This document shows positions 11,451 to 33,694 of a stretch of 33,694 nt of DNA, one piece after another (within the stretch, counting starts at the first letter, position 1; each line of letters opens with the position of its first letter). The notes beneath the pieces were generated by a model. It saw only the letters and a program-made list of their open reading frames with translations. It was not told the origin of the DNA and ran no database searches. Source of the DNA: Actinomycetota bacterium. Lineage in GTDB: Bacteria > Actinomycetota > Actinomycetes > S36-B12. The stretch spans positions 1 through 33,694 of the forward strand of contig JAUXRN010000158.1 of the NCBI GenBank assembly GCA_030681835.1, read 5' to 3'. The position numbers and the translations under genes are program-made.

Positions 11451-11457
11451 CGGCTGC

Positions 11458-17975: not shown

Positions 17976-17999
17976 TCCGGGGCTGGTTCGCCAGCATCG

Positions 18000-18072: not shown

Positions 18073-18089
18073 CGCCGGAGGGAGGGACC

Positions 18090-18698: not shown

Positions 18699-18719
18699 CG
18701 GCGCACGGCCGCAGGGGAC

Positions 18720-18725
18720 TACTGT
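18720..18725 (+). promoter_or_regulatory. Leaderless-type -10 box TACTGT for the S53 peptidase gene
   Basis: TACTGT, 6 nt, then ATG at 18732. No Shine-Dalgarno sequence lies between. Confidence 0.5.
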
Positions 18726-18731
18726 CCGCTC

Positions 18732-20543: not shown

Positions 20544-21091
20544 CCGAAATCGACGTCGGCCGTCGCCACCGTTCCGGCCGTGCGTCCCGGTGCCTCCTGG
20601 TGGGTCCAGTACAGATTCGTGTGCGCGATGACCTGCCCCGGCGGCGGTGCTCCCCAGGAAGTTGAGTCCTCCGTGGTGTGCGCGTCACTGACGAGGGTTG
20701 CGTCGTACCCCCGGACAAGGGCACCGTGCAGGGTGGAGCGGATGCACTGGTCGGTCTGGGCTCCCACGACGACGAGTCGCCCGACCTCGAGTCCGGCGAG
20801 CACGGTTTCCAGGTCGGTGTCCTCGAACGAGTCGCCGTACTGCTTCGCGACCAACGGCTCGGCGTCGCCTGGAGCCAGTTCCGGGACGATCCGCCATTCC
20901 TCGCTACCCGTTGCCAGGTTCTCGTCTTGGTGCTGGACCCAGACCACCGGGATCTGCTCACGCCTCGCCTTCTCCACCAGGCTGCCGACGTTCGCGACGA
21001 CGGCGTCCCGCTCGTGGGCCTCCGCGACGACGCCGTTCTGAACGTCGATCACGACGAGGGCGGTGTTAGGCCTGTTCTCGAGTGTCGTCAC
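20540..21091 (-). CDS. Isochorismatase-fold cysteine hydrolase
   Basis: A 183-residue cytosolic protein of the isochorismatase/nicotinamidase superfamily. The Asp-Lys-Cys triad is visible: Asp16 in VVIDVQNGV, Lys83 in VAKQYGDSF and Cys116 in GAQTDQCIRSTLHGAL. The specific substrate cannot be named; no siderophore or nicotinate genes are nearby. The GTG start has a CAGGAT hexamer ending 6 nt upstream, inside the 18-nt gap to the DUF167 gene on the same strand. The 3' end overlaps the S53 peptidase gene at CTAG. Confidence 0.9.
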   Translation of the reverse strand: MTTLENRPNTALVVIDVQNGVVAEAHERDAVVANVGSLVEKARREQIPVVWVQHQDENLATGSEEWRIVPELAPGDAEPLVAKQYGDSFEDTDLETVLAGLEVGRLVVVGAQTDQCIRSTLHGALVRGYDATLVSDAHTTEDSTSWGAPPPGQVIAHTNLYWTHQEAPGRTAGTVATADVDFG

Positions 21092-21097
21092 GGGGCC

Positions 21098-21103
21098 ATC
21101 CTG
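21098..21103 (-). promoter_or_regulatory. Possible leaderless-type -10 box CAGGAT for the isochorismatase-fold gene
   Basis: On the minus strand CAGGAT, 6 nt, then GTG at 21091. Only A2 and T6 match, so support rests mainly on the shared spacing. Confidence 0.35.
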
Positions 21104-21109
21104 CCGTAC

Positions 21110-21391
21110 CTAGCCCGCCAGCAATGCGTCGATTGCCGCCCGGACCCGGGCGGCGTCCTCGTCCGGGACATCGATCGCCAACACCTTGCTCCGGCCCGTC
21201 GTGCCCGATACGAGCCGGACCTGGCGAGGCTTGAGCCCCAGCGCGTCGGCGACCGCCTTGATCACGGAATCGTTGGCGGCGCCGTCGACGGGCGGCGCCT
21301 GCACGGCCACCACCAGCTGCGCGTCCGTCCCGTACGAGCCCCCCACGCGGGTGCGGGATGCTCCCGGCCGGACGCGCACGGCGATCCTCAT
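21110..21391 (-). CDS. DUF167 (YggU-like) protein
   Basis: A 93-residue protein that fits the whole DUF167/YggU family. Conserved stretches are VRVRPGASRTRV at the start, APPVDGAANDSVIKAVADALGL in the middle (the family's P..G.AN..l...lA..l pattern), and RLVSGTTGRSKVLAID near the end. The biochemical role of the family is not established. The ATG at 21391 is the family start; longer in-frame starts upstream would overlap the divergent dehydrogenase gene. It lies 18 nt upstream of the isochorismatase-fold gene on the same strand. Confidence 0.87.
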   Translation of the reverse strand: MRIAVRVRPGASRTRVGGSYGTDAQLVVAVQAPPVDGAANDSVIKAVADALGLKPRQVRLVSGTTGRSKVLAIDVPDEDAARVRAAIDALLAG

Positions 21392-21421
21392 GTCCGCCAC
21401 GCCTCGATCCTCGCGCGCTGC

Positions 21422-21427
21422 CACAAT
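21422..21427 (+). promoter_or_regulatory. Leaderless-type -10 box CACAAT for the iron-type dehydrogenase gene
   Basis: CACAAT, 6 nt, then ATG at 21434, the same geometry as dusB (GACAAT). Confidence 0.45.
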
Positions 21428-21433
21428 GCCCGC

Positions 21434-22705
21434 ATGCCAATGGAGTCGATCTTCACGTACGGGGCCCCGGGCCTGAAGTTCGGCGAGGGTGCGGTGGACG
21501 AGCTTGGCCCCGACCTGCGGCGCATGGGGGCCCGCCGTGTGCTCGTCGTGACCGATGCGGGCGTCGCCGCCACGGGGCTCCCGGAGCGGGTGGCCGCCGG
21601 GCTGCGGTCGTGCGGCATCGAGGCGGGGGTCTTCGACGGGGTGCACGTCGAGCCCACCGACGAGAGCCTGGTGCTGGCGGGCCAGGCGGCCGCGTCCAGC
21701 GGGCCGTGGGACGCGTTCGTCGCGGTGGGGGGCGGCTCGGCCATCGATACCGCGAAGGCGATGAACCTCCTGGTGTCATGCCCCGGCGAGCTCATGGACT
21801 ACGTCAACGCCCCCGTCGGCGGGGGACGGACGCCCGAGGGCCCGCTGAGGCCCCTCGTCGCGGTTCCGACCACCACCGGGACCGGATCCGAGAGCACGAC
21901 CGTGTGCGTGCTGGACGTGCTGTCGATGAAGGTCAAGACGGGCATCAGCCATGCTGCGCTGCGCCCCGCGCTGGCGGTCGTCGACCCCGACGTCATGATG
22001 AGCCAGCCGCCGGAGGTGACGGCCAGCGCCGGGATGGACATCCTGTGCCACGCGCTGGAGAGCTACACCGCCAAGCCGTTCACCGGATTCGAGCGGAAGG
22101 AGGCGGACCGGCGGGTGCCCTACTGCGGATCGAACCCGCTGGCCGACGTCTTCGCCGAGAAGGCGATGGCGCTGCTGGGCCCGGCCTTCCGCACCGCCGT
22201 GCACGACGGTGGCAACAGGCGGGCGAGGTACGACATGGCCCTTGCCGCGACGTTCGCGGGCCTGGGCTTCGGCAACGCCGGCGTCCACATCCCGCACTCC
22301 AACGGCTACCCGATCGCCGGGCGGGTCCGCGACTTCCGGCCCTCCGGCTACCCGCAGGACGAGCCGATGGTGCCGCACGGGATGTCGGTGTGCCTCACGG
22401 CCCCTGAGGCATTCCGGTTCACCTACTCCACGGACCCTGGCCGGCACGAGCGAGCGGCAGCGCTGCTCGACCCCTCCAACACGGACGGGGCCGACGGCGC
22501 GGAGCGCCTGCCCGCGGTGCTGGCGTCGCTCATGCGCGACATCGGGATCCCGAACGGAATCGCCGGCGTCGGCTACGGGGAGGCCGACGTGCCGGCGCTG
22601 GTCGAGGGGGCCATGGCCCAGCAGCGACTGCTCGCCATCGCCCCGAGGCCGGTGGCCGCCGAGGACCTCGACGGCATCTTCCGGCGCTCGCTGGCCAACT
22701 GGTGA
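21434..22705 (+). CDS. Iron-containing alcohol dehydrogenase, hydroxyacid-oxoacid transhydrogenase-like
   Basis: A 423-residue member of the iron-dependent ADH superfamily. The nucleotide-binding signature GGGSAIDTAKAMNLL is at 99-113, and PTTTGTGSE at 145-153. Likely metal ligands are Asp202 and His206 (MDILCHALE), His288 (VHIPHSNGYPIAG) and His315 (VPHGMSV). The longer middle insert with CGSNPLADVFAEKAM and the GYPQDEPMVPHG stretch resemble the ADHFE1 type, which couples 4-hydroxybutyrate oxidation to 2-oxoglutarate reduction; other hydroxyacids are possible. The thioesterase gene follows 13 nt after the stop, so the two are probably co-transcribed. Confidence 0.88.
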   Translation: MPMESIFTYGAPGLKFGEGAVDELGPDLRRMGARRVLVVTDAGVAATGLPERVAAGLRSCGIEAGVFDGVHVEPTDESLVLAGQAAASSGPWDAFVAVGGGSAIDTAKAMNLLVSCPGELMDYVNAPVGGGRTPEGPLRPLVAVPTTTGTGSESTTVCVLDVLSMKVKTGISHAALRPALAVVDPDVMMSQPPEVTASAGMDILCHALESYTAKPFTGFERKEADRRVPYCGSNPLADVFAEKAMALLGPAFRTAVHDGGNRRARYDMALAATFAGLGFGNAGVHIPHSNGYPIAGRVRDFRPSGYPQDEPMVPHGMSVCLTAPEAFRFTYSTDPGRHERAAALLDPSNTDGADGAERLPAVLASLMRDIGIPNGIAGVGYGEADVPALVEGAMAQQRLLAIAPRPVAAEDLDGIFRRSLANW

Positions 22706-22718
22706 CAAGGTGGCGGCC

Positions 22719-23186
22719 ATGAGCCAGGAGGACGGGACGCCGCGCGGCGACGCGGATCCTCGTTCCCTTCGCGTCACCGACTTCGCGGTCGTGCGCGACG
22801 TGCCGACCCGCTGGGCCGACGAGGACACGTACGGGCATGTCAACAACGCCGTGCACTACCTGCTCTTCGACACCGCCGTCAACGGCTGGATGATCGAGCA
22901 GGTCGGAGACATGCGAGAGCACCCGTCCTTCGGCGTCGTCGCCGAGACCGGGTGCCGGTACTTCGGAGAGCTCCGCTTCCCCGAGCGCATCCGCTGCGGC
23001 ATCGCCCTGGGCAGGCTCGGGACATCGAGCATCACCTACCGGCTCGCGCTGTTCGGCGACCGGACCGAGGAACCGGCAGCAACGGGCCTGTTCGTGCACG
23101 TCTATGTGGACCGAGACACCCGCCGGCCGGTGCCGGTCCCCGATGACGTACGTCGGGCGGTGTCGGTCCTGCTGCCCTGGCCGTGA
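22719..23186 (+). CDS. Hot-dog fold acyl-CoA thioesterase (4-hydroxybenzoyl-CoA thioesterase/FadM type)
   Basis: A 155-residue cytosolic thioesterase. The catalytic-region signature RWADEDTYGHVNNAVHYLLFD (31-51) matches the RW.D.D..GHVNN..Y pattern of this family, with an acidic residue and the GHVNN turn in place. The rest follows the hot-dog layout of one long helix then strands (RYFGELRFPERIRCGI...SSITYRLALF). The acyl group released is not predictable. The ATG at 22719 has an AAGGTGG-like ribosome binding site in the 13-nt gap after the dehydrogenase. Confidence 0.88.
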   Translation: MSQEDGTPRGDADPRSLRVTDFAVVRDVPTRWADEDTYGHVNNAVHYLLFDTAVNGWMIEQVGDMREHPSFGVVAETGCRYFGELRFPERIRCGIALGRLGTSSITYRLALFGDRTEEPAATGLFVHVYVDRDTRRPVPVPDDVRRAVSVLLPWP

Positions 23187-23191
23187 GCCCA

Positions 23192-23214
23192 ACTAGCCGC
23201 GGTTGCGGCCTAGT
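23192..23214. terminator. Hairpin between convergent thioesterase and HMG-CoA reductase genes
   Basis: ACTAGCCGC pairs with GCGGCCTAGT (one bulged base) across a 4-nt loop. It covers the last codons and stop of the reductase gene and lies just after the thioesterase stop, so it could serve both strands. No T tract follows. Confidence 0.45.
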
Positions 23215-24374
23215 CGTTCGTGGCTGGAAACCCAGTCGCCAGCGAGCACCGCGCTGCCGAGGGAGATCTCGCCGGCCAGGACGACTGCCGCGCAGATCTC
23301 CGCCAGCTTGTGCACCTTGCCCGGACCGTGGCAGCCGAGCAGTTCCAGGCATTCCCGCTGGGTGGCGAGACCGGTACCGCCGCCCACGGTGGCGACGATG
23401 AGGGCAGGCAGGGTGATCGACCAGTAGTAGTCGCCCGACTCCAGCATCTGGGTGTACACGATGCCCGCGTGCGACTCGGACACGTTGGCGACGTCCTGCC
23501 CTGTCGCGATGAACAGCGCGGTGAGGCCGTTGGCCGCGTGGGCGCCGTTGTTGGCCGAGCGGGAGAGGAAGGCACCGGTCTGGCTCAGTTGCCGGGCCCA
23601 GAAGAGGGTGGCCGGTTCGACGCCCATGATGGAACGGAGCAGGTCGGCCGGGATGACGGCCTCGGCGACCACCCTCTTGCCCCGGGTCTGCAGCACGTTG
23701 ATGGCCGAGTGCTTCTTGTCGGTGTCGATGCCGCCGGACAGCATGTATCGGCTCGCCCCGGGGTACTGCTCCTTGAGCCACTCGCAGGCCGCGTGGGTGG
23801 CCCGGCCGACCATGTTCTGCCCGGCCGCGTCCCCGGTCGTGTAGTCGAATCGCAGGTAGAGCAGCGGGCCGACGACGTACTGCTCGATCTCCACGAGCCG
23901 GCCGATGCTGGTCGTGGACTCGGCTGCAGCCGCGATCTCGTCGTGGTGCTCGCGGATCCACGCGCCGAACTCGACGGCCTCGAGGGCGTTGGCGAAGGCG
24001 AAGACCGGCGCGCGCTGCATGCGGTCCCCGACGACCGTCGCGCGCACGCCGCCGGCCTCGCTCAGCAGGCGCATCCCGCGGTTGTAGGAAGCGACGAGAG
24101 TGCCCTCGGTCGTTGCCATGGGGACGTAGAAGTCGCCCTGGGCGTGCTGGCCATTGATCCGCAGCGGGCCAGCCAGGCCGATCGGGACCTGTGCCACCCC
24201 CAAGAAGTTCTCGATATTCCCGGGCAGGGAGGCGGGGTCGACGGAGTAGCTGCCGACGTGGGCGAGGTCGGCACCCGTCATCGCGCGGGCGAAGTCGCGG
24301 CGGCGGGCGGCTTGGGCCTCGGTGTAGTCGCCCTCCCGCTCGCGCGGGACGGACGGGGATCGCTCCGCGGTCAT
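23193..24374 (-). CDS. HMG-CoA reductase, class I-like, divergent
   Basis: Reduces HMG-CoA to mevalonate in typical members. The 393-residue protein keeps all four catalytic positions: Glu90 (MATTEGTLVAS), Lys220 (DTDKKHSAIN), Asp294 (TGQDVANV) and His385 near the C-terminus (WVSSHERLGRNRG). The order and the GRGK-like QTRGKRVVAEAVIP stretch match class I. The usual NADPH-binding DAMGMN is changed to DAAGQN (182-187). No membrane anchor is present, as in bacterial and archaeal forms. Most actinobacteria make isoprenoids by the MEP route, so this is an accessory enzyme, and no other mevalonate gene is in the window. The ATG at 24374 overlaps the stop of the upstream gene (ATGA), making it third in a coupled operon. 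Confidence 0.9.
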   Translation of the reverse strand: MTAERSPSVPREREGDYTEAQAARRRDFARAMTGADLAHVGSYSVDPASLPGNIENFLGVAQVPIGLAGPLRINGQHAQGDFYVPMATTEGTLVASYNRGMRLLSEAGGVRATVVGDRMQRAPVFAFANALEAVEFGAWIREHHDEIAAAAESTTSIGRLVEIEQYVVGPLLYLRFDYTTGDAAGQNMVGRATHAACEWLKEQYPGASRYMLSGGIDTDKKHSAINVLQTRGKRVVAEAVIPADLLRSIMGVEPATLFWARQLSQTGAFLSRSANNGAHAANGLTALFIATGQDVANVSESHAGIVYTQMLESGDYYWSITLPALIVATVGGGTGLATQRECLELLGCHGPGKVHKLAEICAAVVLAGEISLGSAVLAGDWVSSHERLGRNRG

Positions 24375-25498
24375 GCGCCCGTGAGGGGATCGGGCGAGGC
24401 ATCCGTCTCGGCGAGCGTCGTCGGCCCCACGCCGGTGTCGGTGCGCGTGCGCCACGGCCACTCCCACGTGCGGAACGGTGCGAGCGGTGCGAGCAGCGGT
24501 TCCATTCCGCGCGACGAGGCCTCGGCTGCGACCTGGCTCAGCCCGGACGGATCCGCGCTGGACGCGCGCTCCGCCACGCCGGCCGCGATCGCGTCGCGGG
24601 CACCGGTCGACAGGAGCTCGGAGTCCATGAGGAAGTAGTCCTTGAAGAAGACCTGGCCAAGGACGCGATCCGACACGATGCGGGTCAGCAGGTCGAGCAT
24701 GGCCTCGTGCGTGGTGCTGAACTCGGTCGTCTCCAGCAGCAGCAGGCGGTCGTTGAACGCCTCTTGGCCGAAGTACTGGGCCATCACCGTGAAGAGGATG
24801 TTGTTGGGCCGGGCGACGTACAGGCAGTTCGAGACGCCGTAGGTCCGTGGCCACGCCTCGTCGCCGATCAGCGCACGCCACTCGTCCATCACCGACATCC
24901 AGTGGCTGACCTGCAGGCCCGCCGCGTAGCCGATGGCGGCCTGGATGCTCGGCTTGAGCGACTGCGCGTAGACCGTCAACGTCTCGGGGGTGAACTCGCC
25001 CGAGTCGAGGCACTGGGTCATGAAATCCAGGTTCGTGCTGAGGATGTGCCGCACCGCGCCGAGCCCCTCGTCCGGCAGGCCCCAGTCATCGCAGGAGTCC
25101 AGGGCCTGCTGCATCTGCTCGCGATAGGCGCGCATCGGCCCGTGCCAGGCGCGGGTGGTGGGGTCCCCGGTGTAGCGGGCGAGGAGTTGATACGTGGCGA
25201 TGGCGCTGTGTCCCACCGACTTGGTCGCCTCGTACTGGATCGGCACCCGAGGGGCCTCGAGCGGCTCGTGGCCCGGCCGGTAGAGGGTGAACTGGCCGCC
25301 CTGGCTGGTGAACAGGCCGAGAATGACCGGGCAGGAGTCGAGCAGGTTCTTCTGGTATGCCGCCAGGGCATGGGCGTAGATGCTGTCCTTCGCCGAGTTC
25401 AACGCGAGGGCCGACGCTAGGCCCACGTCGGCCGGCGATGCCGCGGGCACCTCGCGGACGACCTCGCGCATGAACGGCGGGACAGCGGAATGGCTCAT
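24371..25498 (-). CDS. Unknown protein encoded between ABM-domain and HMG-CoA reductase genes
   Basis: I do not recognise this 375-residue protein. It has no signal peptide and no clear membrane helix, and appears largely alpha-helical (many Ala/Leu/Gln heptad-like runs, for example YREQMQQALDSC and EAMLDLLTRIVSDRVLGQVF). Notable stretches are DSCPVILGLFTSQGGQFTLYRPGHEPL (about 55-81) and WMSVMDEWRALIGDEAWPRTYGVSNCLYVARPNNILF. The C-terminal 30 residues are polar and likely flexible. The ATG at 25498 has an AGGGAG ribosome binding site; a longer in-frame start upstream would overlap the ABM gene. It is 29 nt behind that gene and overlaps HMG-CoA reductase by 4 nt, so it is probably needed in the same process. 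Confidence 0.8.
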   Translation of the reverse strand: MSHSAVPPFMREVVREVPAASPADVGLASALALNSAKDSIYAHALAAYQKNLLDSCPVILGLFTSQGGQFTLYRPGHEPLEAPRVPIQYEATKSVGHSAIATYQLLARYTGDPTTRAWHGPMRAYREQMQQALDSCDDWGLPDEGLGAVRHILSTNLDFMTQCLDSGEFTPETLTVYAQSLKPSIQAAIGYAAGLQVSHWMSVMDEWRALIGDEAWPRTYGVSNCLYVARPNNILFTVMAQYFGQEAFNDRLLLLETTEFSTTHEAMLDLLTRIVSDRVLGQVFFKDYFLMDSELLSTGARDAIAAGVAERASSADPSGLSQVAAEASSRGMEPLLAPLAPFRTWEWPWRTRTDTGVGPTTLAETDASPDPLTGA

Positions 25499-25527
25499 GT
25501 CGGGGACTCCCTGGCTCAGCGGGTGGG

Positions 25528-26523
25528 TCAGAATCCCCAGCCCATGTAGATCGTCACCGTAACGGCGACCGTCACCGCGTACACACCGATGAGGATCATC
25601 ACGCCCCGGATCGTCTCGTCCTTCGCTGCCAGCGGGTCCAGCCACCACGACATCACCCTTGTGACGAACGGCATGAGGACCCAGGTGAGCAGGATCGTGC
25701 CGATCACGTTGCCGATGAACACGACGGCCGGGAAGGGTATGCCCAGGCCGTCCACGACGGTTTCGCCGCCAATGGACAGGCCACGACCGAACCACGAGCC
25801 GAGGGTGATGTTGTAGGCCGTGACCAGGGGATAGAGGACGGCCAGGACCGTCATGGCCTTCTTCCACGTGGGCGTGGCCGCCGAGGAGGCGCCCGTGTCG
25901 AACCAGAGGTCGCGCCCGGCTGGCTGGACCCGGACCTGCGAGGTGGCGAAGCCGTCCTCGAGGGCGACGAGCCGCTTGCGCTGGTCCGACTCCTGCCAGG
26001 CCCGCAGGTCCGCATCGGACGCGAAGGTGATGATCGTCGTCCAGACGCCGTCCTCGGTCGGCGGCTCGAAGACCTTGATCCCGGCGAAGCCGGCCCGGGC
26101 AGCGACCGCTGCGTTCAGCTCGGCCTGGACGGCCCGCCAGTCATCGACCCGCTCGGCCGGGATCCACTCGCTGATGACCATCGACCGGCGTGCGTCGTCG
26201 AGCTCCTCGGTCTGCGACTCGACCGGCGGTGCGGCGAAGAGGGGTCCCGCGTCGGCCACGAGCTGGGCACGCGCCGGCGAGGCACGCCACGCATCGCGGG
26301 CCCCGCCCGACGCGAAGCGGTAGGTCAGCCGCCAGTCGGTGCCGCCTCCGCGTGCCGGCACCGAGTCGACCGTCAAGCCGAGGAAGCCATCGGCGGAGCG
26401 GGCAGAGACAGCAGTCGCGGCGAGCCACGCGTGCAGGTCGGCGTCCATGCCTGCTGCGACAGGGAAGCTCACCGAGAGGAAGGACACGGGGGCGTCCGTC
26501 GCGCCCGCCGAAGACGACGGCAT
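25528..26523 (-). CDS. Double ABM-domain protein with C-terminal membrane region (COG3224-like)
   Basis: The 331-residue protein has two antibiotic-biosynthesis-monooxygenase-type (dimeric alpha+beta barrel) domains in tandem at about 12-95 and 114-205, followed by TWKKAMTVLAVLYPLVTAYN and two more hydrophobic helices (about 222-240, 265-287, 305-327). This is the layout of the COG3224 group. ABM domains can be cofactor-free monooxygenases, but many have no known activity, and the membrane-tail form has no established role. It is first in the operon with the unknown protein and HMG-CoA reductase, which suggests a membrane-bound step on an isoprenoid or lipid-like substrate; that is inference. 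The ATG at 26523 follows a G-rich stretch that is a poor ribosome binding site. Confidence 0.85.
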   Translation of the reverse strand: MPSSSAGATDAPVSFLSVSFPVAAGMDADLHAWLAATAVSARSADGFLGLTVDSVPARGGGTDWRLTYRFASGGARDAWRASPARAQLVADAGPLFAAPPVESQTEELDDARRSMVISEWIPAERVDDWRAVQAELNAAVAARAGFAGIKVFEPPTEDGVWTTIITFASDADLRAWQESDQRKRLVALEDGFATSQVRVQPAGRDLWFDTGASSAATPTWKKAMTVLAVLYPLVTAYNITLGSWFGRGLSIGGETVVDGLGIPFPAVVFIGNVIGTILLTWVLMPFVTRVMSWWLDPLAAKDETIRGVMILIGVYAVTVAVTVTIYMGWGF

Positions 26524-26581
26524 ATCCCCCCGTTCCCGGTCGCGGTGGACCGCAGCATCGTGCGAGCGGGACGAAGCCTAG

Positions 26582-27304
26582 CTACGGCCGCTTCGCGCCG
26601 GCCACGTTGACGGTGATCGCTCCGCCGTCGCACGAGATTCCCTGGCCCGCCATCCGGACGGACTCGTCCGTCCCGATCGTGAACGTGAGGTTCCCCGTGC
26701 ACTGCGAGCCGTTGAACTCACCAGTCGCCCCCCTCGCCACCCCGCCCTGGCTGGTGGTCCCATCGGCATTGGCCGAGACGACCCAGGTCACCGTGCCGCG
26801 TGCCACGCCGCCGAGCACCCCGTTCTGCACGGTCAGCTGCAGGCCCTGGACCTGTGCTCCGACGGCGACCGCGGGGTCGGTGCTCGCCGTGACGGTGTAG
26901 CCGAAGTCATAGGTGCCGTTCAGGTCGGACAGCTGGTGTTGCGTCAGGGACGGATTCACCGTGGCGCAGCTGTTCGAGCCCAGGTTCGGCACCGACTTGG
27001 TGAGCACGAGCAGCTCGTGCTTGCCCAGGCGCCCGAACGCGGACTGAACGGCGATCTGGCCGAAGGGGATCGGGAAGCACCCCGACTTGATCGCGAAATG
27101 CCGCCCGTCTTTCGCGTTGCCGGGCAGGCAGCCGTTTGCCTTGAGCAGGGTGCGTGCCTCCTGGACGGTCAGCCCGACAACGGGGACCGCCGTGCATCGT
27201 CCGGCCTGCTGTGTGGGGATCCCCCAGGCGGGGACCGCGTTCAGCACTACGGCTGCCGCAAAGAGGCCGCCGATCATGAGTGACGCAAATCGGGGACTAG
27301 TCAT
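26582..27304 (-). CDS. Secreted protein with a PASTA-like N-terminal domain
   Basis: A 240-residue exported protein of unknown function. The signal peptide is about 1-29 (LMIGGLFAAAVVLNAVPAWG). Residues about 39-105 look like a PASTA domain: VPVVGLTVQEARTLLKANGCLPG has the V..V.GL...EA...L...G pattern. Cys at 37, 59, 76 and 113 may form disulfides. The C-terminal part (about 117-240) is a Gly/Thr-rich beta domain with DLNGTYDFGYTV and a Cys pair (202, 225). A decayed copy of the middle part lies upstream at 27445-27600. The ATG at 27304 is chosen over a GTG 9 nt upstream because GAGGTG is at the right distance. Binding of cell-wall fragments would suit a PASTA fold but is not shown. Confidence 0.8.
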   Translation of the reverse strand: MTSPRFASLMIGGLFAAAVVLNAVPAWGIPTQQAGRCTAVPVVGLTVQEARTLLKANGCLPGNAKDGRHFAIKSGCFPIPFGQIAVQSAFGRLGKHELLVLTKSVPNLGSNSCATVNPSLTQHQLSDLNGTYDFGYTVTASTDPAVAVGAQVQGLQLTVQNGVLGGVARGTVTWVVSANADGTTSQGGVARGATGEFNGSQCTGNLTFTIGTDESVRMAGQGISCDGGAITVNVAGAKRP

Positions 27305-27710
27305 CGAGATCACCTCGGATGCAGTCGAACCACGCGGACCCTTTCGCCGGACCCGCTACGCCAACGGTCCTCCCGGCCTCCCGGACTGTCAACAGGCGCA
27401 GAACGCGGACGTGCGCCTCCCCGCGTCATGGCGAAGCCCTGTCACGGTCCCTCCTGCATCTGCCCGCCGAAGGCGCCGTTCCTGACCCGGAACGTCACGA
27501 CGTACTGCTCCCTGGCAACCGGCGCGGCGGGGCTGGTGCTGGCGGGGACCTTGTACCTGGAGTCATGCGTGCCGTCGAGGTCGGACAGGCCGTGGGCGCG
27601 GCCGCGTGGCCTGATCCGCAAGCCAAGGACCCGACCATCCGGCCCGCGATGGGTGTCAAGGACGTCCGGCGGCACCGGCTGGATAGGCTGGCGAGGCATG
27701 CTTCCCCACG
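27305..27710. other. Gene-poor spacer with a decayed gene fragment
   Basis: About 400 nt with no intact gene. It holds the leader of the PASTA-like gene (GAGGTG ribosome binding site), the decayed paralogue fragment at 27445-27600 and, near its end, a possible -10 box TAGGCT (27684-27689) for the downstream tRNA. Nothing else is recognisable. Confidence 0.6.
27445..27600 (-). pseudogene. Decayed partial copy of the adjacent PASTA-like secreted protein gene
   Basis: The minus-strand reading frame gives HGLSDLDGTHDSRY, then VPASTSPAAPV, then VTFRVRNGAFGG. These match HQLSDLNGTYDFGY, VTASTDPAVAV and LQLTVQNGVLGG at about residues 123-166 of the intact neighbour, in the same order and spacing. 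The frame hits a stop soon after and there is no signal peptide or PASTA part, so this is a remnant of a tandem duplicate. Confidence 0.65.
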
Positions 27711-27784
27711 GGGGCGGTAGCTCAGCTGGTTAGAGCCCCGGACTCATAATCTGGTCGTCGTCGGTTCGAGCCCGACCCGCCCCA
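27711..27784 (+). tRNA. tRNA with anticodon CAU (elongator Met, or Ile2)
   Basis: A 74-nt cloverleaf. Acceptor arms GGGGCGG (27711-27717) and CCGCCCC (27777-27783) pair perfectly; the discriminator is A27784. The anticodon stem CCGGA/TCTGG (one G-U pair) holds the loop CTCATAA, anticodon CAT. The T arm is GTCGG-TTCGAGC-CCGAC. A paired first base and the lack of three G-C pairs in the anticodon stem exclude initiator tRNA. Elongator Met and lysidine-modified Ile2 cannot be told apart by eye. CCA is not encoded. Confidence 0.93.
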
Positions 27785-28168
27785 CTCGCTGAAAGTCGTT
27801 GCGGCGCAACGAGTTTCAGTTTGACTAAAGTGCTGCATGATGGGTGCGAACAGGCTCTCTTGTGCCCACTTAGTGGCACAGATCTGGCAGGGAATCCCTC
27901 ATAGAGCCCGTCCGAAATCCGGGCAATGGCACGATAGTGGCACGCCGACGACGACCAGATTCGGGCCGCACTCGGCGCAAGCGTCGAGGTCCGCAGACCT
28001 GGATCGGCACTCACTCGCGATGCGCAGGTCCGGGTTTCACGTCGCCGAGGCGGCTGCAGGCAACTGCAATCGGGCTAGGTAGCAGGCGCGTCTGCCATTT
28101 CAGGGCCGGGTCGATTTCGCGTATCCATGGAGCGGCACGGCTGGGAGGCGCGCGAGCGCCTGGGGGAA
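27785..28168. other. Gene-free spacer behind the CAU tRNA
   Basis: About 380 nt with no gene I can support. It contains the 31-nt hairpin at 27789-27819, a local hairpin GTGCCCAC-TTA-GTGGCAC at 27862-27879, and repeated TGGCAC words (27874-27879, 27927-27932, 27938-27943; TAGTGGCAC occurs twice). Short frames here are not protein-like. A past insertion site behind the tRNA is possible. Confidence 0.5.
27789..27819 (+). terminator. Long hairpin directly behind the CAU tRNA
   Basis: CTGAAAGTCGTTGCG and CGCAACGAGTTTCAG are 15-nt arms with one mismatch around a single central G. It starts 5 nt after the tRNA and is followed by a short T-rich stretch (TTTGACT), as expected of a tRNA terminator. 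Its near-perfect dyad could also be a recombinase or regulator site. Confidence 0.55.
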
Positions 28169-28801
28169 TCAGTAGGGCTCAGCCCAGAAGATGAGCTCGT
28201 CGGTGCCGGTCCCCACGTGGTCGACAACCTTGAGGCGACCGTCTTTCAGGTCACGGAAGAGCGAGAAACTCGCCTCATGCCACGTGGCGCAGGCGCTGGC
28301 CGCGTTACCGGGGGCCGATGGCTGCGCCGGTGGCGTGGGCGTTGGCGGTGGCGACGGCTGCGGGGGCTTGGGCTTGTCCGGCAGGAGGGCCATCTCGCGT
28401 GACGGAGGGGCCGTGGGCGCGGCCGGGGCGGTGGGGGCCGCCGGCGCCGTGTTCGGCGGCGTGCGCATCGGCAGGACCGACCCGTTGTAGGCGTAGATGC
28501 GGTTGCCGTTGGCTGGGTTGGTCGTCAGGCCGGTCCGCGTCAGGCGCCAGACAACGTCGCCGACGGCGCGGGGGCACGTCGTGGCCGGACGCGCTGACCC
28601 GTCCTGCGGACCAAGGATCTTGACCACCGTGCCGATGAACCCGGCATTGGTTGCGGTGATCGACAGCACGAGACCCTTTGTTGCCCACGCGTCCACGATG
28701 GGGTCCCTAGCGCGGGTGGGTCCGGCCGAGGCGGCTCCCGATGTGATGATGCCCACCACCAGGAGGGCCAGTACTCCACTGGCGGCGATGATCCGGCGCA
28801 T
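28169..28801 (-). CDS. Secreted protein with a split unnamed domain and Pro-rich insert
   Basis: A 210-residue exported protein. The signal peptide is about 1-26 (LALLVVGIITSGAASA). Residues 34-111 and 170-207 together form a domain that I also find in the secreted protein at 30546-31418: a W near the start, GTVV, a Cys, VVW, Y-x-GS, then C..W..A.F...D...G.LKVV......GT.ELIFW. In this copy the two halves are separated by a low-complexity linker rich in Pro, Ala and Thr (113-166). No enzyme motif is visible. The ATG at 28801 has GGAGG at the right distance; a GTG lies one codon upstream. It follows the propeller gene at 28941-30110 on the same strand after 139 nt. Confidence 0.75.
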   Translation of the reverse strand: MRRIIAASGVLALLVVGIITSGAASAGPTRARDPIVDAWATKGLVLSITATNAGFIGTVVKILGPQDGSARPATTCPRAVGDVVWRLTRTGLTTNPANGNRIYAYNGSVLPMRTPPNTAPAAPTAPAAPTAPPSREMALLPDKPKPPQPSPPPTPTPPAQPSAPGNAASACATWHEASFSLFRDLKDGRLKVVDHVGTGTDELIFWAEPY

Positions 28802-28940
28802 CACGCACCTCCACGGCCCGCCGGCACAGCGGCTTGGTGCCGCTAGGCAGCCACGTCCACGATAGGCCGAACCCGACCCTGACGCGCGCCGAGCCGACGC
28901 CAGCGAGGTCCCAGTGGGCGGTTCGCTCTAGACGGCCTGC

Positions 28941-30110
28941 TCAGCGGCTCACGGCCACGACGCTGACTGTGCCGTCGATCTCCGTGCCGTCGATCTCCGT
29001 GCCGTCGCTCTCCGTCAAGTCGGGCCAGTTCGCCACGTACAGTCGCGTCCCGGCGGAGTTGATAACCGGCTCGCCAGACGCGTACGTCACCCGGCCGCGT
29101 GCGACGACGGCGTTCGTGGCCAAATCGATCATGAGGACCCGCTTCCCGCCCGTCACGAAAAGCCGAGTCGCAGACGCGTCCAGCACCGGAGTGAACGGTT
29201 CGATACCCGTCGCGATGTGCCCGATGACGGTGTTCTTGAGCGTGTCGATGACCGTCACCGTATCCTCGTTCGCGGTCACCAGGTACAGCCGATTCCGGGT
29301 GGGGTCGAGCACCGGCATCCCGGGCCACATGCCCACGGTGATGCTGGCGACCTTCTTGTGCTTGCGCGTATCCAGGACCAGGAGCGTACCTGGGTCCTCG
29401 TCGTCGCTGAGGGGGACGTACAGGAGGCTCCGGTCCGGGTCCGGCACCATGTCGGAGGGGTTCTCGATGTCGGTGATCCGCCACACGATGCGTGCTGTCC
29501 GCGGGTCCACGGCGACGATCGACCCGCGGTAGGCGCGCCATTCGTTCATGTAGAGCCGGCCGTTGTCCGGGTTGAGCGACATGACGGTCGCACCCTTCGG
29601 TGGGGCGACAGTACGAATAACGGCACCGGTGGCCGGGGCGAGCGTGAGCAGCACCGTCGGCTCCTCGGTCAGCACGTAGAGCCGGCCGCGCGGCGCATCG
29701 AGGACCATGGCGGTCGGGTAACCCTTGGTGACGATGGTCTTGAGGACGGTGTTCGTGCCCGTATCGATCACCAGCAGCTTCTTCGCGCTGGGGAGGAGCG
29801 CGAACAGGCGCCTGCGCGCGGAGTCGAGGGCCACCTGCTGGATCTGGTCGTCCAGCGGCGTGCCGACGTCGATCGTGGCGGTGACCGCGTTGCTGGTCGT
29901 GCTGATGACGGAGATGGACGCGGAATAGCTGTTGGCCACGTACAACTGACCCCTGGCCTCGTCGAGCACGGGGGTGATCGGGCGCTCCCCGACGGTAATC
30001 GTGGCGACCGTGTTCAGGGTCGCGTGCGGCAGGACGGCCGCAGCCGGCGAGGCGAGTGACTGGGCCAGGAGGGGTAGTCCGACGGCTGCCGTGATGAGCG
30101 TGCGGTGCAT
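28941..30110 (-). CDS. Secreted YVTN-repeat beta-propeller protein (propeller A)
   Basis: A 389-residue exported protein. The signal peptide is about 1-25 (LITAAVGLPLLAQSLASPAAA). The rest is made of about 42-residue repeats of the YVTN type, for example ITVGERPITPVLDEARGQLYVANSYSASISVIST and VTVIDTLKNTVIGHIATGIEPFTPVLD, which fold as propeller blades. Such proteins bind surfaces, ligands or partners, or serve as scaffolds; no catalytic residues can be inferred. Near the C-terminus a 15-bp tandem repeat encodes DGTEIDGTEIDGT. The ATG at 30110 has GGGAGG 5-6 nt upstream. Two related propellers are encoded on the other strand (31761-33011 and from 33023). Confidence 0.88.
   Translation of the reverse strand: MHRTLITAAVGLPLLAQSLASPAAAVLPHATLNTVATITVGERPITPVLDEARGQLYVANSYSASISVISTTSNAVTATIDVGTPLDDQIQQVALDSARRRLFALLPSAKKLLVIDTGTNTVLKTIVTKGYPTAMVLDAPRGRLYVLTEEPTVLLTLAPATGAVIRTVAPPKGATVMSLNPDNGRLYMNEWRAYRGSIVAVDPRTARIVWRITDIENPSDMVPDPDRSLLYVPLSDDEDPGTLLVLDTRKHKKVASITVGMWPGMPVLDPTRNRLYLVTANEDTVTVIDTLKNTVIGHIATGIEPFTPVLDASATRLFVTGGKRVLMIDLATNAVVARGRVTYASGEPVINSAGTRLYVANWPDLTESDGTEIDGTEIDGTVSVVAVSR
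28969..29013 (+). repeat. Three tandem 15-bp units inside propeller A
   Basis: GTGCCGTCGATCTCC occurs twice in a row and a third unit differs by one base. Each unit keeps frame and adds five residues (DGTEI) in a surface loop near the C-terminus, so unit number could vary without breaking the protein. Confidence 0.85.
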
Positions 30111-30545
30111 GGCGCCTCCCAGGTCGCTCTACCGGCACCTTGCGACGTTCGCGGCCCGTCGGGCAGAGGCGAAGGTCCCGGAGGGGCTCCTCCTCCTCCG
30201 GTGTCGTGCACCTGAGCGGGCCGTCCGTCACCCCTGCCCCCGCTGGAGGGAATGCCAGGTGGAGCCTGCACGGGAGTACTCGGGCGGCAGTGGCTCCCCG
30301 TCACGCCACCCTCGCCGAACCCCCGGGTATCCGTCAAACAACAGAACTGGCGCTGCTGTCTCTTTGCGGCGAGGGTGCCGGTTAGGGCCGGATTCCCGCT
30401 GCACGGCAGGTCGCCAGCGGCGGCGTCCGCGCTCTTTGAGGCCATTCAGCGTTGCTCTGGGACCTAAGACCCTGGCTGCTTCCTGGCACGAACGGTAACT
30501 TGCCAGTGACGGCCGCTCTCGCAGGCAGAGAGAAGGTGGTGACAG
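30111..30545. promoter_or_regulatory. Divergent spacer of the propeller locus
   Basis: About 435 nt separate the start codons of the minus-strand and plus-strand halves of the locus. It should hold promoters in both directions, but I cannot place either with confidence. A CTGGCA...TGCCAG inverted repeat (30483-30506, 12-nt spacer) precedes the plus-strand gene, whose ribosome binding site is AGAAGGTGG. No gene is supported here. Confidence 0.45.
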
Positions 30546-31418
30546 ATGCCGGGGACAAGTACTCGCACCTCGAGTGCGTGGAAATTGATGGCTGTGCTTG
30601 CGTTTGTTGTTGCCCTCGTCTTCACGTCGGCCGTCGGATCGGTCGCACCGGCATCGGCCACCGCGCAAGACCTCTCGATTCTCGGATTGTGGACACGTTC
30701 CGACAACGGCGGTTCGGTGCTGGTCACCTTGCACACCTTCTCCAACAATCCTGCTGAGCGTGACTATCGGGCCACTGTCGTGACCCCATGGAAGAGCGCA
30801 GATTGCTCGTTCGAAACGGACGAGGTCGTGTGGGCGGGTGTGCAGGGGACTTGGCCGTCGTACACGGGCAGCGCTTGGGGCAAGCAACCCGGGGCCTGCG
30901 AGAGGATCGAAGGTTGGCAAGCTGCCACTTGGGACATGACCGACCCCAACACAGGTGTCTTGAAGTTGCTGGAAACAGTAACTCTCTGGGGCACCAAGAC
31001 CGTATTCATATGGACGAAATCCGGCAGGTCAGTTGACCTTCCGCCAGGTCCTCCTGCGGGCTTCAACCTTGGTGGCGGTGTGACACTGGATTTCCCGGAA
31101 TACCTACCCGGTGCGAGCCATCGGACAGCGAAGAAGGCAACCACGAGTCAGCGATCCGCACCTGTGATTCCAATACCCCTGAATCGAGCCGTATCGCTCA
31201 ACGTGCAGGGTCTGCCGAAGGGAGGGGCGGTCTTCGCGAGCATCGATGCCCGGGAGCAGTCGACGGACCCGACGAAATGGGTACCCCTGGGCGGAGGCAA
31301 ACGGACCGCAGGGCAAGTCGCGCTACCGCTGTTCTCCGTGACGAAACCCGGCGTTTACGCCCTGAAGCTGGAGGTCAGCCTGGGGGGCACGTACTTCGCC
31401 AAAGTGCGCGCTGGCTAG
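30546..31418 (+). CDS. Secreted two-domain protein sharing an unnamed domain with the 28169-28801 protein
   Basis: A 290-residue exported protein. The signal peptide is about 1-40 (LMAVLAFVVALVFTSAVGSVAPASA). Residues about 43-158 carry the shared domain: LW at 48-49, RATVV, Cys87, DEVVW (92-96), YTGS, Cys118, then GWQAATWDMTDPNTGVLKLLETVTLWGTKTVFIW without the Pro-rich insert. Residues about 207-290 look like a beta-sandwich domain ending YALKLEVSLGGTYFAKV. No enzyme motif is seen. Base use is less GC-rich than the housekeeping block (27 G/C in the 60 nt from 30961), suggesting acquisition. The ATG has AGAAGGTGG just upstream. Propeller B follows on the same strand. Confidence 0.78.
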   Translation: MPGTSTRTSSAWKLMAVLAFVVALVFTSAVGSVAPASATAQDLSILGLWTRSDNGGSVLVTLHTFSNNPAERDYRATVVTPWKSADCSFETDEVVWAGVQGTWPSYTGSAWGKQPGACERIEGWQAATWDMTDPNTGVLKLLETVTLWGTKTVFIWTKSGRSVDLPPGPPAGFNLGGGVTLDFPEYLPGASHRTAKKATTSQRSAPVIPIPLNRAVSLNVQGLPKGGAVFASIDAREQSTDPTKWVPLGGGKRTAGQVALPLFSVTKPGVYALKLEVSLGGTYFAKVRAG

Positions 31419-31760
31419 AAGGGCGCCCCAGACGGGCACTCTTGTTGCCGGCCGAGGTAGTGCCGTTGTGGCGGGGTGAGGGGCGCGAGTGGACTTACCG
31501 AGGTGCTCGCACGCTTAGGTCAGTTCATCTTCGCCGACCATCTGGGCTCGGTGAGATCCGAGGAAGGCGCTCGTGTACGGACTTGGGAAATGGGGGAGCT
31601 TTCGCACGACAATGTGGTCCCTACACATGTTAAGCGACCAGCGGACGGCCTGTTCTGCCAGGCAGCGATCTTCGCTGCGAATGGGGCGACCCAGGATGTG
31701 AACGCCCGCGAAGTTGCCGTTGACCATTCCGCGAATGGCGAAGCCAGACGGGAGGGGGAA
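31419..31760. other. Spacer before propeller B
   Basis: About 340 nt with frames open on both strands, but none shows a ribosome binding site plus protein-like composition. An in-frame extension of the propeller B gene to 31476 is rejected because it lacks a ribosome binding site and would bury the signal peptide. A GGAGGGGG ribosome binding site for propeller B is at 31751-31758. No other element is recognised. Confidence 0.5.
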
Positions 31761-33011
31761 GTGCTGACATCCGCGCCAATGCCCAGGAGTACGCTGCGAC
31801 GTGCAACCGCCATGGCGGCCGTGGCAGCGGTCGTGGCCCTGGTGGGGAGTGCCTCATCCGCGGTGGCCATCGGTGGCTCGCCGACTTCCGCCGATCCGAA
31901 GCTGGTCGCGACGATTCCGGTGGGCATCGATCTTGGCGTTCCCGTGCTGGACGTCGCCGCGCACAGGTTGTACGTCCCTGTCGCCAGCCAGAACTCGATC
32001 GCGGTGATCGATACCGCGCGTGACGCGGTTGCGGCCACGATCGGTCGCTTCAATGGCCCGCTGGGCCTGGTCCTCGACTCGGCCCGGCACCGGCTGTACG
32101 TGTCGAACTCGAAGTGGCACTCGGTCGCGGTACTGGACACCACGACGAATCGGCAGATTGCCTCCGTGGATGTTGGCGCACTGCCGGGCGCCTCTGTCCT
32201 GGACACCGGGCGCCAGTTGCTCTATGTCCTCAACACGGGTGAGGGTTCCGTGTCGGTGGTGGACACGCGCCGGAATGCAGTGGTGTCCACCATTGCCTTG
32301 GGCGGCACACCGATCGACGCCGTGCTCGACCCGACCGGGCGACGGCTGTACGTGAGCACCCACACCGGTTTTGGGGGGGGAAACGGCAAGGTGTCGGTCG
32401 TCAATACCAAGACGAGCAAGCTCATCGCCTCGCTCAGCCTCGCGGACTACCCACGGTTCTTGATCCTCAACGCTGCCGCCCATCGACTGTATGCGGCTGT
32501 TGCGAGCCGGAGCGCAATCCAGGTGATCGACACGACGAGGAACAAGGTCATCACGACCATCAAGGTCGGTCGATACCCGTACGACGCCGCACTGGATGAG
32601 GGGCGGCAGTTTCTCTATGTCACGAACACCGACTCGTGGAACGAGTTCCCAGGATCGGTGTCGGTCATCGACGCGCGAGCCAACCGAGTGGTCTCGACGA
32701 TCTCGTTCGACCAGGCCCCTACCGTACTAGCCCTCGACGCCGGAGCCCAGCGCCTCTATGTCGCGATTGTGAATCCAGACCGCCATGGGACACGGTTCTC
32801 GGTGATCGACACGGCCACGAACGCCGTGATCGTGACGAGTCCGAGCATCACAGGGGCGAGTCCGCCCGTACTGGTCGTGGACCCTTCGCTGCAGCGCCTC
32901 TACGCACCACACGACTTCAACATCACTGCCGGTGAGAGCGTGACGCCAGGGGTCGTCGACGTCTTCGACATCCAGGCAACGGCCCGACTTGTGCGTTCCT
33001 CCATTGGCTGA
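31761..33011 (+). CDS. Secreted YVTN-repeat beta-propeller protein (propeller B)
   Basis: A 416-residue exported protein. The start is set at GTG 31761 because GGAGGGGG ends 2 nt upstream; an ATG six codons later (31779) is also possible. The signal peptide follows (RRATAMAAVAAVVALVGSASSAVA). The mature part has seven or so repeats of about 42 residues with the pattern VSVIDT..N.VV.TI.VG..P....LD....RLYV, for example IAVIDTARDAVAATIGRFNGPLGLVLDSARHRLYVSN, as in a seven-bladed propeller. No catalytic motif. The stop lies 11 nt before the start of propeller C, so the two are probably one operon. Closely similar in plan to propeller A on the other strand. Confidence 0.88.
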   Translation: MLTSAPMPRSTLRRATAMAAVAAVVALVGSASSAVAIGGSPTSADPKLVATIPVGIDLGVPVLDVAAHRLYVPVASQNSIAVIDTARDAVAATIGRFNGPLGLVLDSARHRLYVSNSKWHSVAVLDTTTNRQIASVDVGALPGASVLDTGRQLLYVLNTGEGSVSVVDTRRNAVVSTIALGGTPIDAVLDPTGRRLYVSTHTGFGGGNGKVSVVNTKTSKLIASLSLADYPRFLILNAAAHRLYAAVASRSAIQVIDTTRNKVITTIKVGRYPYDAALDEGRQFLYVTNTDSWNEFPGSVSVIDARANRVVSTISFDQAPTVLALDAGAQRLYVAIVNPDRHGTRFSVIDTATNAVIVTSPSITGASPPVLVVDPSLQRLYAPHDFNITAGESVTPGVVDVFDIQATARLVRSSIG

Positions 33012-33022
33012 ACGGGGTGGTG

Positions 33023-33694
33023 ATGATGGCGCGAAGTGGCATGGTGACGTTGAGAGTGCCAGTGTCCCTGCTGGCGGCGGGCGGTCTCGTGTTGACGCCG
33101 TTGGTGCATCCTGCGTCGGCAGGTGAGACCGCCCCAACGGTGGCGGTGTCGCCGGTCATCGTTGCGACGATTGCGGTCGGGCAATTACCCGGAACACCTC
33201 TACTCGATGCGACGACGCACCACCTTTACGTACCCAACTTAAGGTCTGATTCGATCACGGTGGTCGATACCAGCACCAACAGCGTTGCTGGGACCATTCA
33301 TCTGACCAGTAGCCCGTGGATCATGGGGCTGGCGCCGATACGGGGTCATCTGTACGTGCAGGAAGGCTCCAATTCGGTCACCGTCATAGACACGACCACG
33401 AACTCGGCCGTCTCCTCGATCAGGGTCGGGAAGGACCCGACTGACGCGGTCATCGACGTGGACAAAGGGCGACTGATTGTGCTCAATGGCACATCCAGCA
33501 GCATCTCGGTGATCAACACGGCAACGAATTCGGTGACCGCCACGATCAAGGTGACTCCACCTGGGTCGGAGTTGGCGCTCGACGCGGGCCTGGGCCTGCT
33601 CTACACGGACTACAACACAGCGCGTGGCATGGGAGTGTCGGTCATCAGCATCCGGTCGAACCGGGTGATCGGGCACATCAGCACTCCCCGGGAT
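33023..33694 (+). CDS. Secreted YVTN-repeat beta-propeller protein (propeller C), 5' part
   Basis: The gene runs off the right edge of the window in an open frame; 224 residues are visible. Possible starts are GTG 33020, ATG 33023 and ATG 33026, all in the same frame. A signal peptide is present (LLAAGGLVLTPLVHPASA). YVTN repeats follow: VATIAVGQLPGTPLLDATTHHLYVPNLRSDSITVVDTSTNSV, then VTVIDTTTNSAVSSIRVGKDPTDAVIDVDKGRLIV and further units. The 11-nt distance to propeller B suggests co-expression. The complete blade number cannot be seen. Confidence 0.85.
   Translation, partial: MMARSGMVTLRVPVSLLAAGGLVLTPLVHPASAGETAPTVAVSPVIVATIAVGQLPGTPLLDATTHHLYVPNLRSDSITVVDTSTNSVAGTIHLTSSPWIMGLAPIRGHLYVQEGSNSVTVIDTTTNSAVSSIRVGKDPTDAVIDVDKGRLIVLNGTSSSISVINTATNSVTATIKVTPPGSELALDAGLGLLYTDYNTARGMGVSVISIRSNRVIGHISTPRD

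What the first reader, a model, noticed from the sequence alone, without database searches (positions are those of the whole stretch)
28169..33694. Mirrored locus pairing YVTN propellers with small secreted domain proteins
From a divergent centre at about 30.1-30.5 kb, the minus strand encodes propeller A then a small secreted protein, and the plus strand encodes a related secreted protein then propellers B and C. All five have signal peptides, none has an enzyme motif, and the two small proteins share a domain. This looks like a duplicated and inverted two-gene module for an extracellular assembly (scaffold plus bound partner), with a further propeller added. I know of no named system with this make-up.
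Basis: partly seen in the sequence, partly recalled or inferred. Interest (0 to 1): 0.7.

Follow-up and report, generated by a model that had tools for sequence, protein, structure and literature searches.

The report
Secreted propeller–barrel genes in mobile island
A bacterial genomic island next to a transfer-RNA gene carries secreted propeller proteins and two small secreted proteins that share an undescribed domain, which in a sister species is also joined to a phospholipase-like protein.

Summary
The five genes are real. S1 (28169-28804 -) and S2 (30546-31418 +) do share a domain. BLASTP misses it. Profiles built without either find both: 30.6 and 29.2 bits against 11.0 for the best of 2000 shuffles; 17.7 and 24.3 against 8.5 for 4000, using other lineages only. 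No scanned member matched a Pfam family at its cut-off over this domain.

The "mirrored duplicate" reading fails. PropA and S1 are closest to a PropA'-S1' pair on another contig (65% and 63%). PropA and PropB are 32% identical, and gene order is PropA-S1 against S2-PropB-PropC. In sister genome G002 the pair is followed, 15 bp on, by this domain joined to a phospholipase A2-like domain.

The locus lies just downstream of tRNA-Met (27711-27785), an integration site. On another contig, its far side has 43-44 bp repeats, tyrosine integrase, Xis and TrwC relaxase.

Of 25 S-domain genes with neighbours read, 5 lie within two genes of a propeller, all in the two sister species. Best reading: island cargo whose PropA-S1 pair is a secreted binding module. 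Function is inferred.

The parts
27711..27785 (+). tRNA-Met (CAT), the integration site; its 3' 43-44 bp recur at the far side of the island
   Evidence: ARAGORN; repeats in own contig C164 at 9383 (0 mismatches) and 12227 (1 mismatch) and in G002:C47:4673-4716 (44/44)
27786..28063 (.). tRNA-proximal end segment of the island
   Evidence: 27710-27961 is 87% identical to G002:C47, and 27741-28063 is 81% identical to G002:C3:103472-103796
28169..28804 (-). S1: secreted protein, one S-domain with a long Pro-rich insert (about residues 112-170) between predicted strands 5 and 6, two Cys (77, 172)
   Evidence: profile hits; 63-65% identical to S1' of G000:C29 and G002; AF2 model mean pLDDT 69, eight strands; cysteines
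28941..30110 (-). PropA: secreted YVTN beta-propeller, eight repeat motifs
   Evidence: TIGR02276 E 1.8e-24; 65% identical to PropA' on C29; motifs
30111..30545 (.). divergent intergenic region between PropA and S2
   Evidence: sequence; no sigma-70-like promoter found in 27700-33694
30546..31418 (+). S2: secreted protein, N-terminal S-domain (30663-31055) plus a C-terminal region predicted poorly
   Evidence: profile hits; domain limits; alignment A10; AF2 model poor, mean pLDDT 42
31779..33011 (+). PropB: secreted YVTN beta-propeller (the open frame begins at 31476; likely start 31779)
   Evidence: TIGR02276 E 9.6e-40; start; the regex counted nine motifs, of which I take eight as repeats by eye, one being off the pattern
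33017..33694 (+). PropC: YVTN beta-propeller, truncated by the contig end, 5 bp after PropB
   Evidence: TIGR02276 E 2.7e-25; contig length

Best explanation
The locus is cargo at the tRNA-proximal end of a genomic island integrated in tRNA-Met; on its far side the island carries a tyrosine integrase, Xis and a TrwC relaxase. Its core is a two-gene secreted module, PropA then S1, related to a PropA'-S1' pair elsewhere in the genome. S2 and the PropB-PropC pair are further secreted cargo of the same general kinds.

Proposed mechanism (inferred): the S-domain is a small disulphide-bonded beta-barrel of lipocalin/avidin-like topology that binds a ligand or surface outside the cell. The PropA propeller is its rigid partner or scaffold, and S1's Pro-rich loop acts as a spacer. 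In the sister species the same apparent operon adds an effector, a phospholipase A2-like protein with its own S-domain, so the module there would bring a lipolytic activity to its target. The window copy has the binding part without the enzyme.

Shown: gene content, the shared domain, the pairing, the island boundaries on both sides and their synteny. Inferred: that C93 and C164 are the two ends of one island, the barrel fold, the physical contact of propeller and S1, and ligand binding. My confidence is about 0.85 that the locus is island cargo, about 0.7 that PropA-S1 is a functional pair, and about 0.3 for ligand/surface binding through a barrel.
For: Island: tRNA-Met at 27711-27785. The left flank, window 17000-26531, is 90-93% identical to G002:C47. 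G002 then has a different island with a TrwC relaxase-helicase and a type I restriction R-type protein (EcoEI_R_C), ending at a 44/44 copy of the tRNA 3' end. Own contig C164 has two more copies, and C164:12227-16007 is 95% identical to the G002 right flank. C164 carries an integrase (PF00589, 1.7e-16), HTH_17/Tn916-Xis, and TrwC relaxase plus helicase. The C164 integrase region is 75% identical in DNA to G002's and the relaxase region 92%.

Module: PropA-S1 pairs in 3 of 3 S1 cases. Spacing is 136 bp in the window and 82 bp in both PropA'-S1' pairs. In G002 the S-domain+PLA2-like gene starts 15 bp after S1' (PF09056 E 8.8e-05, below Pfam's cut-off, with a C-x2-H-D-x2-Y motif). pN/pS: 0.45 PropA/PropA', 0.21 PropA' between species, 0.34 S1/S1' (synonymous sites near saturation, dS 1.9), 0.23 S1' between species.

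Domain; W, C and C invariant in 20 aligned domains. Fold hints: S1 model of eight strands; its best Foldseek rows are lipocalin HP1028, with YceI at rank 4; avidins appear at ranks 33-36 of the S2 model's rows; streptavidin C1 is second of two rows in the PDB profile search. None is significant.
Against: No fold match reaches significance: Foldseek E 0.33 at best for S1, with many phage coat proteins among its rows, and 0.15 for S2, the latter a phage tail fibre; PDB profile E 0.48 (a ribonuclease) and 0.55. The S2 model is poor (pLDDT 42), and S1's second half rests on two sequences. The S-domain without a propeller nearby is the rule outside these species (20 of 25 cases in all), so it does not need a propeller. 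S2 with PropB has been seen once only. C93 and C164 are separate contigs of a draft assembly (96% complete, 5.3% contamination), and the stretch between them is unseen. I found no integrase in the window part. The PLA2-like gene is absent beside PropA'-S1' in the window's own genome, where a search found only one S+PLA2-like gene, on C228, so it is not a fixed part of the module. The PLA2-like part also occurs without a detected S-domain in G012 and G032.
Confidence: 0.4

Rival explanations
1. Unlinked secreted cargo: the island has gathered several secreted-protein genes of families already common in this genus, and their neighbourhood has no functional meaning beyond the inherited PropA-S1 pair.
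For: YVTN propellers are common in the genus (12 of 14 genomes). In 13 propeller-bearing stretches (L057-L069) the S-domain profiles found no S-domain gene. For 20 of 25 S-domain genes no propeller neighbour was found. The tRNA-Met site holds different content in G002. S2-PropB was seen once.
Against: S1 is next to PropA in 3 of 3 cases, both stay intact at about 65% identity, and both show pN/pS well below 1.
Confidence: 0.35
2. One reading: an inverted duplication of one propeller plus small-protein module forming an extracellular assembly, with a third propeller added.
For: Divergent arrangement; the small proteins share a domain; PropA and PropB share the repeat family.
Against: The gene order is not mirrored. 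PropA-PropB identity is 32%, lower than PropB-C71 or PropB-PropC. S1 and S2 are not alignable by BLASTP. The nearest relative of PropA-S1 is the pair on contig C29.
Confidence: 0.05
3. Secreted attack module: the S-domain targets a partner cell or its envelope, with the phospholipase A2-like protein as the damaging part and the propeller as scaffold or immunity-like partner; the window copy is a disarmed remnant.
For: The apparent operon PropA'-S1'-S+PLA2 in G002; five further S+PLA2-like proteins in G002 and one in G000, of which P6 (G002) and P4 (G000) have Arg at the catalytic His position; the window locus lies in an island.
Against: I saw no killing or immunity gene family among the five genes, and no activity was tested. 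Prokaryotic PLA2 may simply feed on lipids.
Confidence: 0.12

Closest known systems
YVTN beta-propeller repeat proteins / YncE (TIGR02276, NF052280)
   Same: Repeat profile and secreted propeller; PropA, PropB and PropC all over the TIGR02276 cut-off
   Different: Far below the YncE equivalog cut-off (89, 105 and 41 bits against 400); eight repeat motifs in PropA rather than the seven blades in the YncE name; paired with S-domain genes
Prokaryotic phospholipase A2 (PF09056)
   Same: S-domains of the genus are fused to a C-terminal domain weakly matching it (P1 and P2 scanned), with a C-x2-H-D-x2-Y motif in P1-P3, P5 and P7
   Different: Below Pfam's gathering score; no such domain in the window's five proteins
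Lipocalin / YceI / avidin-like beta-barrels
   Same: Eight-stranded model of S1 and a G-x-W start in most members; non-significant structural and profile matches
   Different: No significant match; two conserved Cys and, in S1, a Pro-rich loop insert
DUF6777 proteins (PF20568)
   Same: Planobispora siamensis has an S-domain at the C-terminus of a DUF6777 protein
   Different: No DUF6777 in the five proteins; no propeller found nearby
tRNA-integrated elements with tyrosine integrase, Xis and TrwC relaxase
   Same: tRNA-Met 3' end repeated, integrase next to the repeat, Xis, relaxase
   Different: Cargo of secreted propeller and S-domain genes; assembly gap between the two ends

Membership tests
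YVTN beta-propeller repeat proteins (TIGR02276) | repeat profile above curated cut-off | tested here: met
   85.4, 134.3 and 88.1 bits against 27.85
YncE equivalog (NF052280) | score above 400 bits | tested here: not met
   89.4, 104.9 and 41.1 bits; PropC is truncated
S-domain family (defined here) | match to a profile built without the tested protein, above shuffled controls | tested here: met
   S1 30.6 and S2 29.2 bits, best of 2000 shuffles 11.0; 17.7 and 24.3, best of 4000 shuffles 8.5
S-domain family (defined here) | conserved W and two Cys | tested here: met
   invariant in 20 aligned domains including S2; S1, not in that alignment, has W40, C77, and C172 after the Pro-rich insert, the last aligned by eye
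Lipocalin/avidin-like barrel | significant structural or profile match to a solved member | tested here: not met
   best E 0.33, 0.55; so 'like' only
Prokaryotic phospholipase A2 (PF09056) | profile match above gathering score in relatives of S1/S2 | tested here: not met
   23.5 and 22.4 bits against 29.4 in the two scanned; the motif is present, so relatives are called PLA2-like
tRNA-integrated mobile element | direct repeat of the tRNA 3' end at both ends, site variable between relatives | tested here: met
   in the own genome the two ends are on two contigs
tRNA-integrated mobile element | integrase on the same contiguous element | tested here: inconclusive
   integrase on C164 beside the repeat; the join between C93 and C164 is not assembled
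Inverted duplicated module | mirrored order and closest similarity between the two halves | tested here: not met

The most novel reading that the evidence does not exclude
The S-domain is an undescribed secreted barrel domain of Actinomycetota used as an interchangeable binding part: alone, in tandem, behind DUF6777, with a C-terminal region, or in front of a phospholipase A2-like domain. With the PropA propeller it forms a new secreted two- or three-component complex, propeller plus S1 plus S-domain phospholipase, that is passed between genomes on tRNA-Met islands.
Probability: 0.3. Interest if true: 0.6.

Novelty: new variant of a known kind. Interest (0 to 1): 0.42.

Why it matters
If right, it gives a definable, unannotated extracellular domain of Actinomycetota and a testable guess at what one group of the common but mostly unexplained secreted YVTN propellers does: hold a small binding partner. 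It also shows such modules as island cargo, with or without a lipolytic enzyme.

Tried and rejected
Inverted duplication: rejected on order and identities. S1-S2 similarity by BLASTP: no signal; a five-sequence profile dominated by S1's Pro-rich stretch also missed S2; profiles without S1 found it. A first scan of genome contigs with S2 found no relative. Weak S1 matches in 19 further genomes (E 2.8e-4 to 0.08) were not taken as relatives; the loci held for 18 of these 19 (L005-L022) were among the ORFs searched and none matched; the nineteenth (G049) was not followed up. X141 in L081 looked similar by its G-x-W start but did not match the S profile; I take it for a META domain (recalled, not tested). 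Structure: the S2 model is too poor to use. An attempt to help S1's second half with fragment rows misaligned and was dropped for alignment A8. Foldseek gave no match at E <= 0.001. Promoters: none found; four terminator-like sites against 2.6 expected. Literature: six searches; I saw listings and the starts of abstracts only and read no paper. None of the listed titles or abstract starts described this domain or a propeller-S-domain pair, within that open-access library only (one search listed 20 of 85). Plasmid search with PropA: 147 records, all under 60% identity, 10 listed. My notebook entry 4 calls L102 a Thermoleophilia MAG; no call supports that name and I withdraw it. Its record title says Bifidobacterium breve, which its 5.0 Mb size makes doubtful (recalled size of that species).
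Full report
What is there. The window is the whole contig C93 of a 3.27 Mb draft genome, 269 contigs, 96% complete, 5.3% contamination. A sister species in the same genus, G002, matches the record titled Actinomycetota bacterium isolate E19_metabat.bin.114 (JAUSNB01; two contigs of the same lengths). At 28.2-33.7 kb lie S1 and PropA on the minus strand and S2, PropB and PropC on the plus strand. The propellers match TIGR02276; S1 and S2 match nothing above cut-off in Pfam or NCBIfam. PropB most likely starts at 31779 and PropC is cut by the contig end. All five have signal-peptide-like starts, no lipobox and no LPxTG motif (simple script and by eye; PropC's start is the weakest, and its C-terminus is not in the window).

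The shared domain. BLASTP of S1 against S2 gives nothing. A search with S1 in 59 related genomes found close relatives only in G000 (contig C29) and G002 (contig C15). In G002 the gene after S1' is a 429-residue secreted protein whose N-terminal part resembles S1 and whose C-terminal part weakly matches prokaryotic phospholipase A2 (PF09056, 23.5 bits, cut-off 29.4) with a C-x2-H-D-x2-Y motif. Seven such proteins (six in G002, one in G000; two of them near-identical counterparts) gave a profile of their N-terminal domains. It finds S1 at 30.6 bits and S2 at 29.2 bits, neither being in the profile; the best of 2000 shuffles is 11.0. A second profile from 13 domains of other lineages only finds S2 at 24.3, S1 at 17.7 and the other two S1-type proteins at 22.7 and 17.2; the best of 4000 shuffles is 8.5. 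The alignment of 20 domains, S2 among them, keeps one Trp and two Cys in all. I call it the S-domain.

How widespread. With profile A2, 2 of 118 genomes of the order match (G000 with 4 places, G002 with 7) and 2 of 296 in a sample of the class (G000 and one other). With profile A4, 1 of 396 in a sample of the phylum matches, the own genome. Searches scored at most 15 and 11 candidates per genome in the rows shown, so they may miss weak members; G000 itself gave 2 places and 4. A scan of genome contigs with one degenerate pattern found 5 loci: three in the G002 record, one in Planobispora siamensis (the second genome), and one in a record titled Bifidobacterium breve (G754, 5.0 Mb, so the label is doubtful). 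In the order of G754, with profile A9, 12 of 183 genomes match (13 places). Architectures seen: single domain with Pro-rich insert (S1), domain plus C-terminal region (S2 and L102-like), tandem domains (L133 by profile, L132 by eye), C-terminal in large proteins (L134-L136), behind DUF6777 (L103), and before Ig-like and PLA2-like regions (genus) ('Ig-like' is my reading, no call names it).

Propeller neighbours. I read the surroundings of 25 S-domain genes: 4 in G000, 7 in G002, L102, L103, and 12 loci L127-L138. Propellers were sought by BLASTP to eight propellers and by a profile of the same eight; both found them only in the window, L053 and L054. Five of 25 genes lie within two genes of a propeller: S1, S2, S1' of G000, S1' of G002 and the S+PLA2-like gene after it. 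Four stretches are short on one or both sides (L130, L133, L135, L137), so some neighbours are unseen. S1-type genes are next to a PropA-type propeller in 3 of 3 cases, two of which are the same locus in two sister species.

Not a mirrored duplicate. Among the eight propellers compared (not all of the genome's), PropA is 65-67% identical to PropA' of C29 and G002, and 32% to PropB. PropB's best match is C71 (37%, 141 bits), then PropA' (32-34%), PropA (32%) and the truncated PropC (38%). S1 is 63-65% identical to S1'. Gene order is PropA-S1 on one side and S2-PropB-PropC on the other. The pair has its relative at another place, not inverted in place. pN/pS of PropA/PropA' is 0.45, S1/S1' 0.34 (synonymous sites near saturation), and between species 0.21 and 0.23, so both members are probably kept by selection.

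Where it sits. A tRNA-Met gene lies at 27711-27785. Window DNA left of it, 17000-26531, is 90-93% identical to G002:C47. The tRNA and 176 bp beyond are 87% identical, then similarity ends. In G002 the site holds about 17 kb of other DNA: a type I restriction R-type protein, a TrwC relaxase-helicase and a tyrosine integrase, ending in a 44/44 copy of the tRNA 3' end at C47:4673-4716. In the window's genome, contig C164 has the same 43 bases at 9383 (exact) and 12227 (one mismatch). Its DNA after 12227 is 95% identical to the G002 right flank. Before the first copy it has an integrase (75% DNA identity to G002's), an Xis-like HTH protein and a TrwC relaxase-helicase whose region is 92% identical to G002's. 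The simplest reading is one island from C93:27786 to C164:9383 or 12227 with an unassembled middle. The two repeats on C164 suggest two neighbouring insertions. This join is inferred.

Structure. The S1 model (mean pLDDT 69) has eight strands in a row; the Pro-rich stretch sits between strands 5 and 6. The S2 model is poor (42). Foldseek found nothing at E <= 0.001. The S1 rows are led by the lipocalin HP1028 (E 0.33), with YceI at rank 4 and many phage coat proteins; the S2 rows include avidins at E 4.2 (ranks 33-36) but are led by unrelated proteins. The PDB profile search lists ribonuclease MC (0.48) and streptavidin C1 (0.55). A barrel is a guess supported by several weak hints, no more.

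How it may work. I think PropA and S1 act together outside the cell: the S-domain binds, the propeller holds, and in G002 a phospholipase A2-like protein with its own S-domain is added to the same apparent operon (15 bp spacing). In the window's genome that gene is absent beside PropA'-S1' on C29 and from the assembled part of the island; the only S+PLA2-like gene found there is on C228. In P4 and P6 the catalytic His position is Arg, so part of that family is probably inactive. The PLA2-like part also occurs without a detected S-domain in G012 and G032. S2 and PropB-PropC may be a second set of this kind or simply fellow cargo; nothing here ties them functionally to PropA-S1.

Known or new. 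Secreted YVTN propellers and tRNA-integrated elements are known kinds. Over the S-domain no scanned protein matched a Pfam family at its curated cut-off, and six literature searches showed no description of it (listings and starts of abstracts only). I file the finding as a new variant of a known kind.

Noticed in passing
window 26582-27313 (-) and 27442-27699 (-): A secreted six-Cys protein with a PASTA-like start (by eye) is followed by a short open frame resembling part of its C-terminal half (by eye), apparently a decayed copy, just left of tRNA-Met. Between the point matching window 26531 and the tRNA, G002 has only about 114 bp.
   Followed up: partly
window 23193-26523 (-): HMG-CoA reductase (PF00368, 6.9e-125), a protein without any clear Pfam match, and a protein with two antibiotic-biosynthesis-monooxygenase-like stretches and a membrane-like end (by eye) lie in a row; the DNA is conserved in G002.
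   Followed up: no
L111 (G000:C164) 9383-12269: A second direct repeat of the tRNA 3' end, one mismatch away, frames about 2.8 kb with a sigma factor and further genes: probably a second small insertion at the same site.
   Followed up: partly
L085:6832-8142 and L081:6920-8230: S-domain proteins whose PLA2-like C-x2-H-D-x2-Y motif reads C-x2-R-D-x2-Y, so the catalytic His position is lost.
   Followed up: partly
L054:3248-6612: A serine recombinase lies close to an S+PLA2-like gene, with partial repeats of a CpaF/TadA-like start nearby (name by eye): possibly a second kind of mobile element carrying this family.
   Followed up: no
L057:400-3463: Three consecutive genes at the start of G000:C127, also in G002:C42, with YVTN repeat matches over the cut-off in each and no S-domain match in that stretch.
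   Followed up: no
G002:C3:103472-103796: A second copy of the tRNA 3' part plus about 280 bp of island end lies elsewhere in G002, with no intact tRNA found there: perhaps the trace of another insertion.
   Followed up: no
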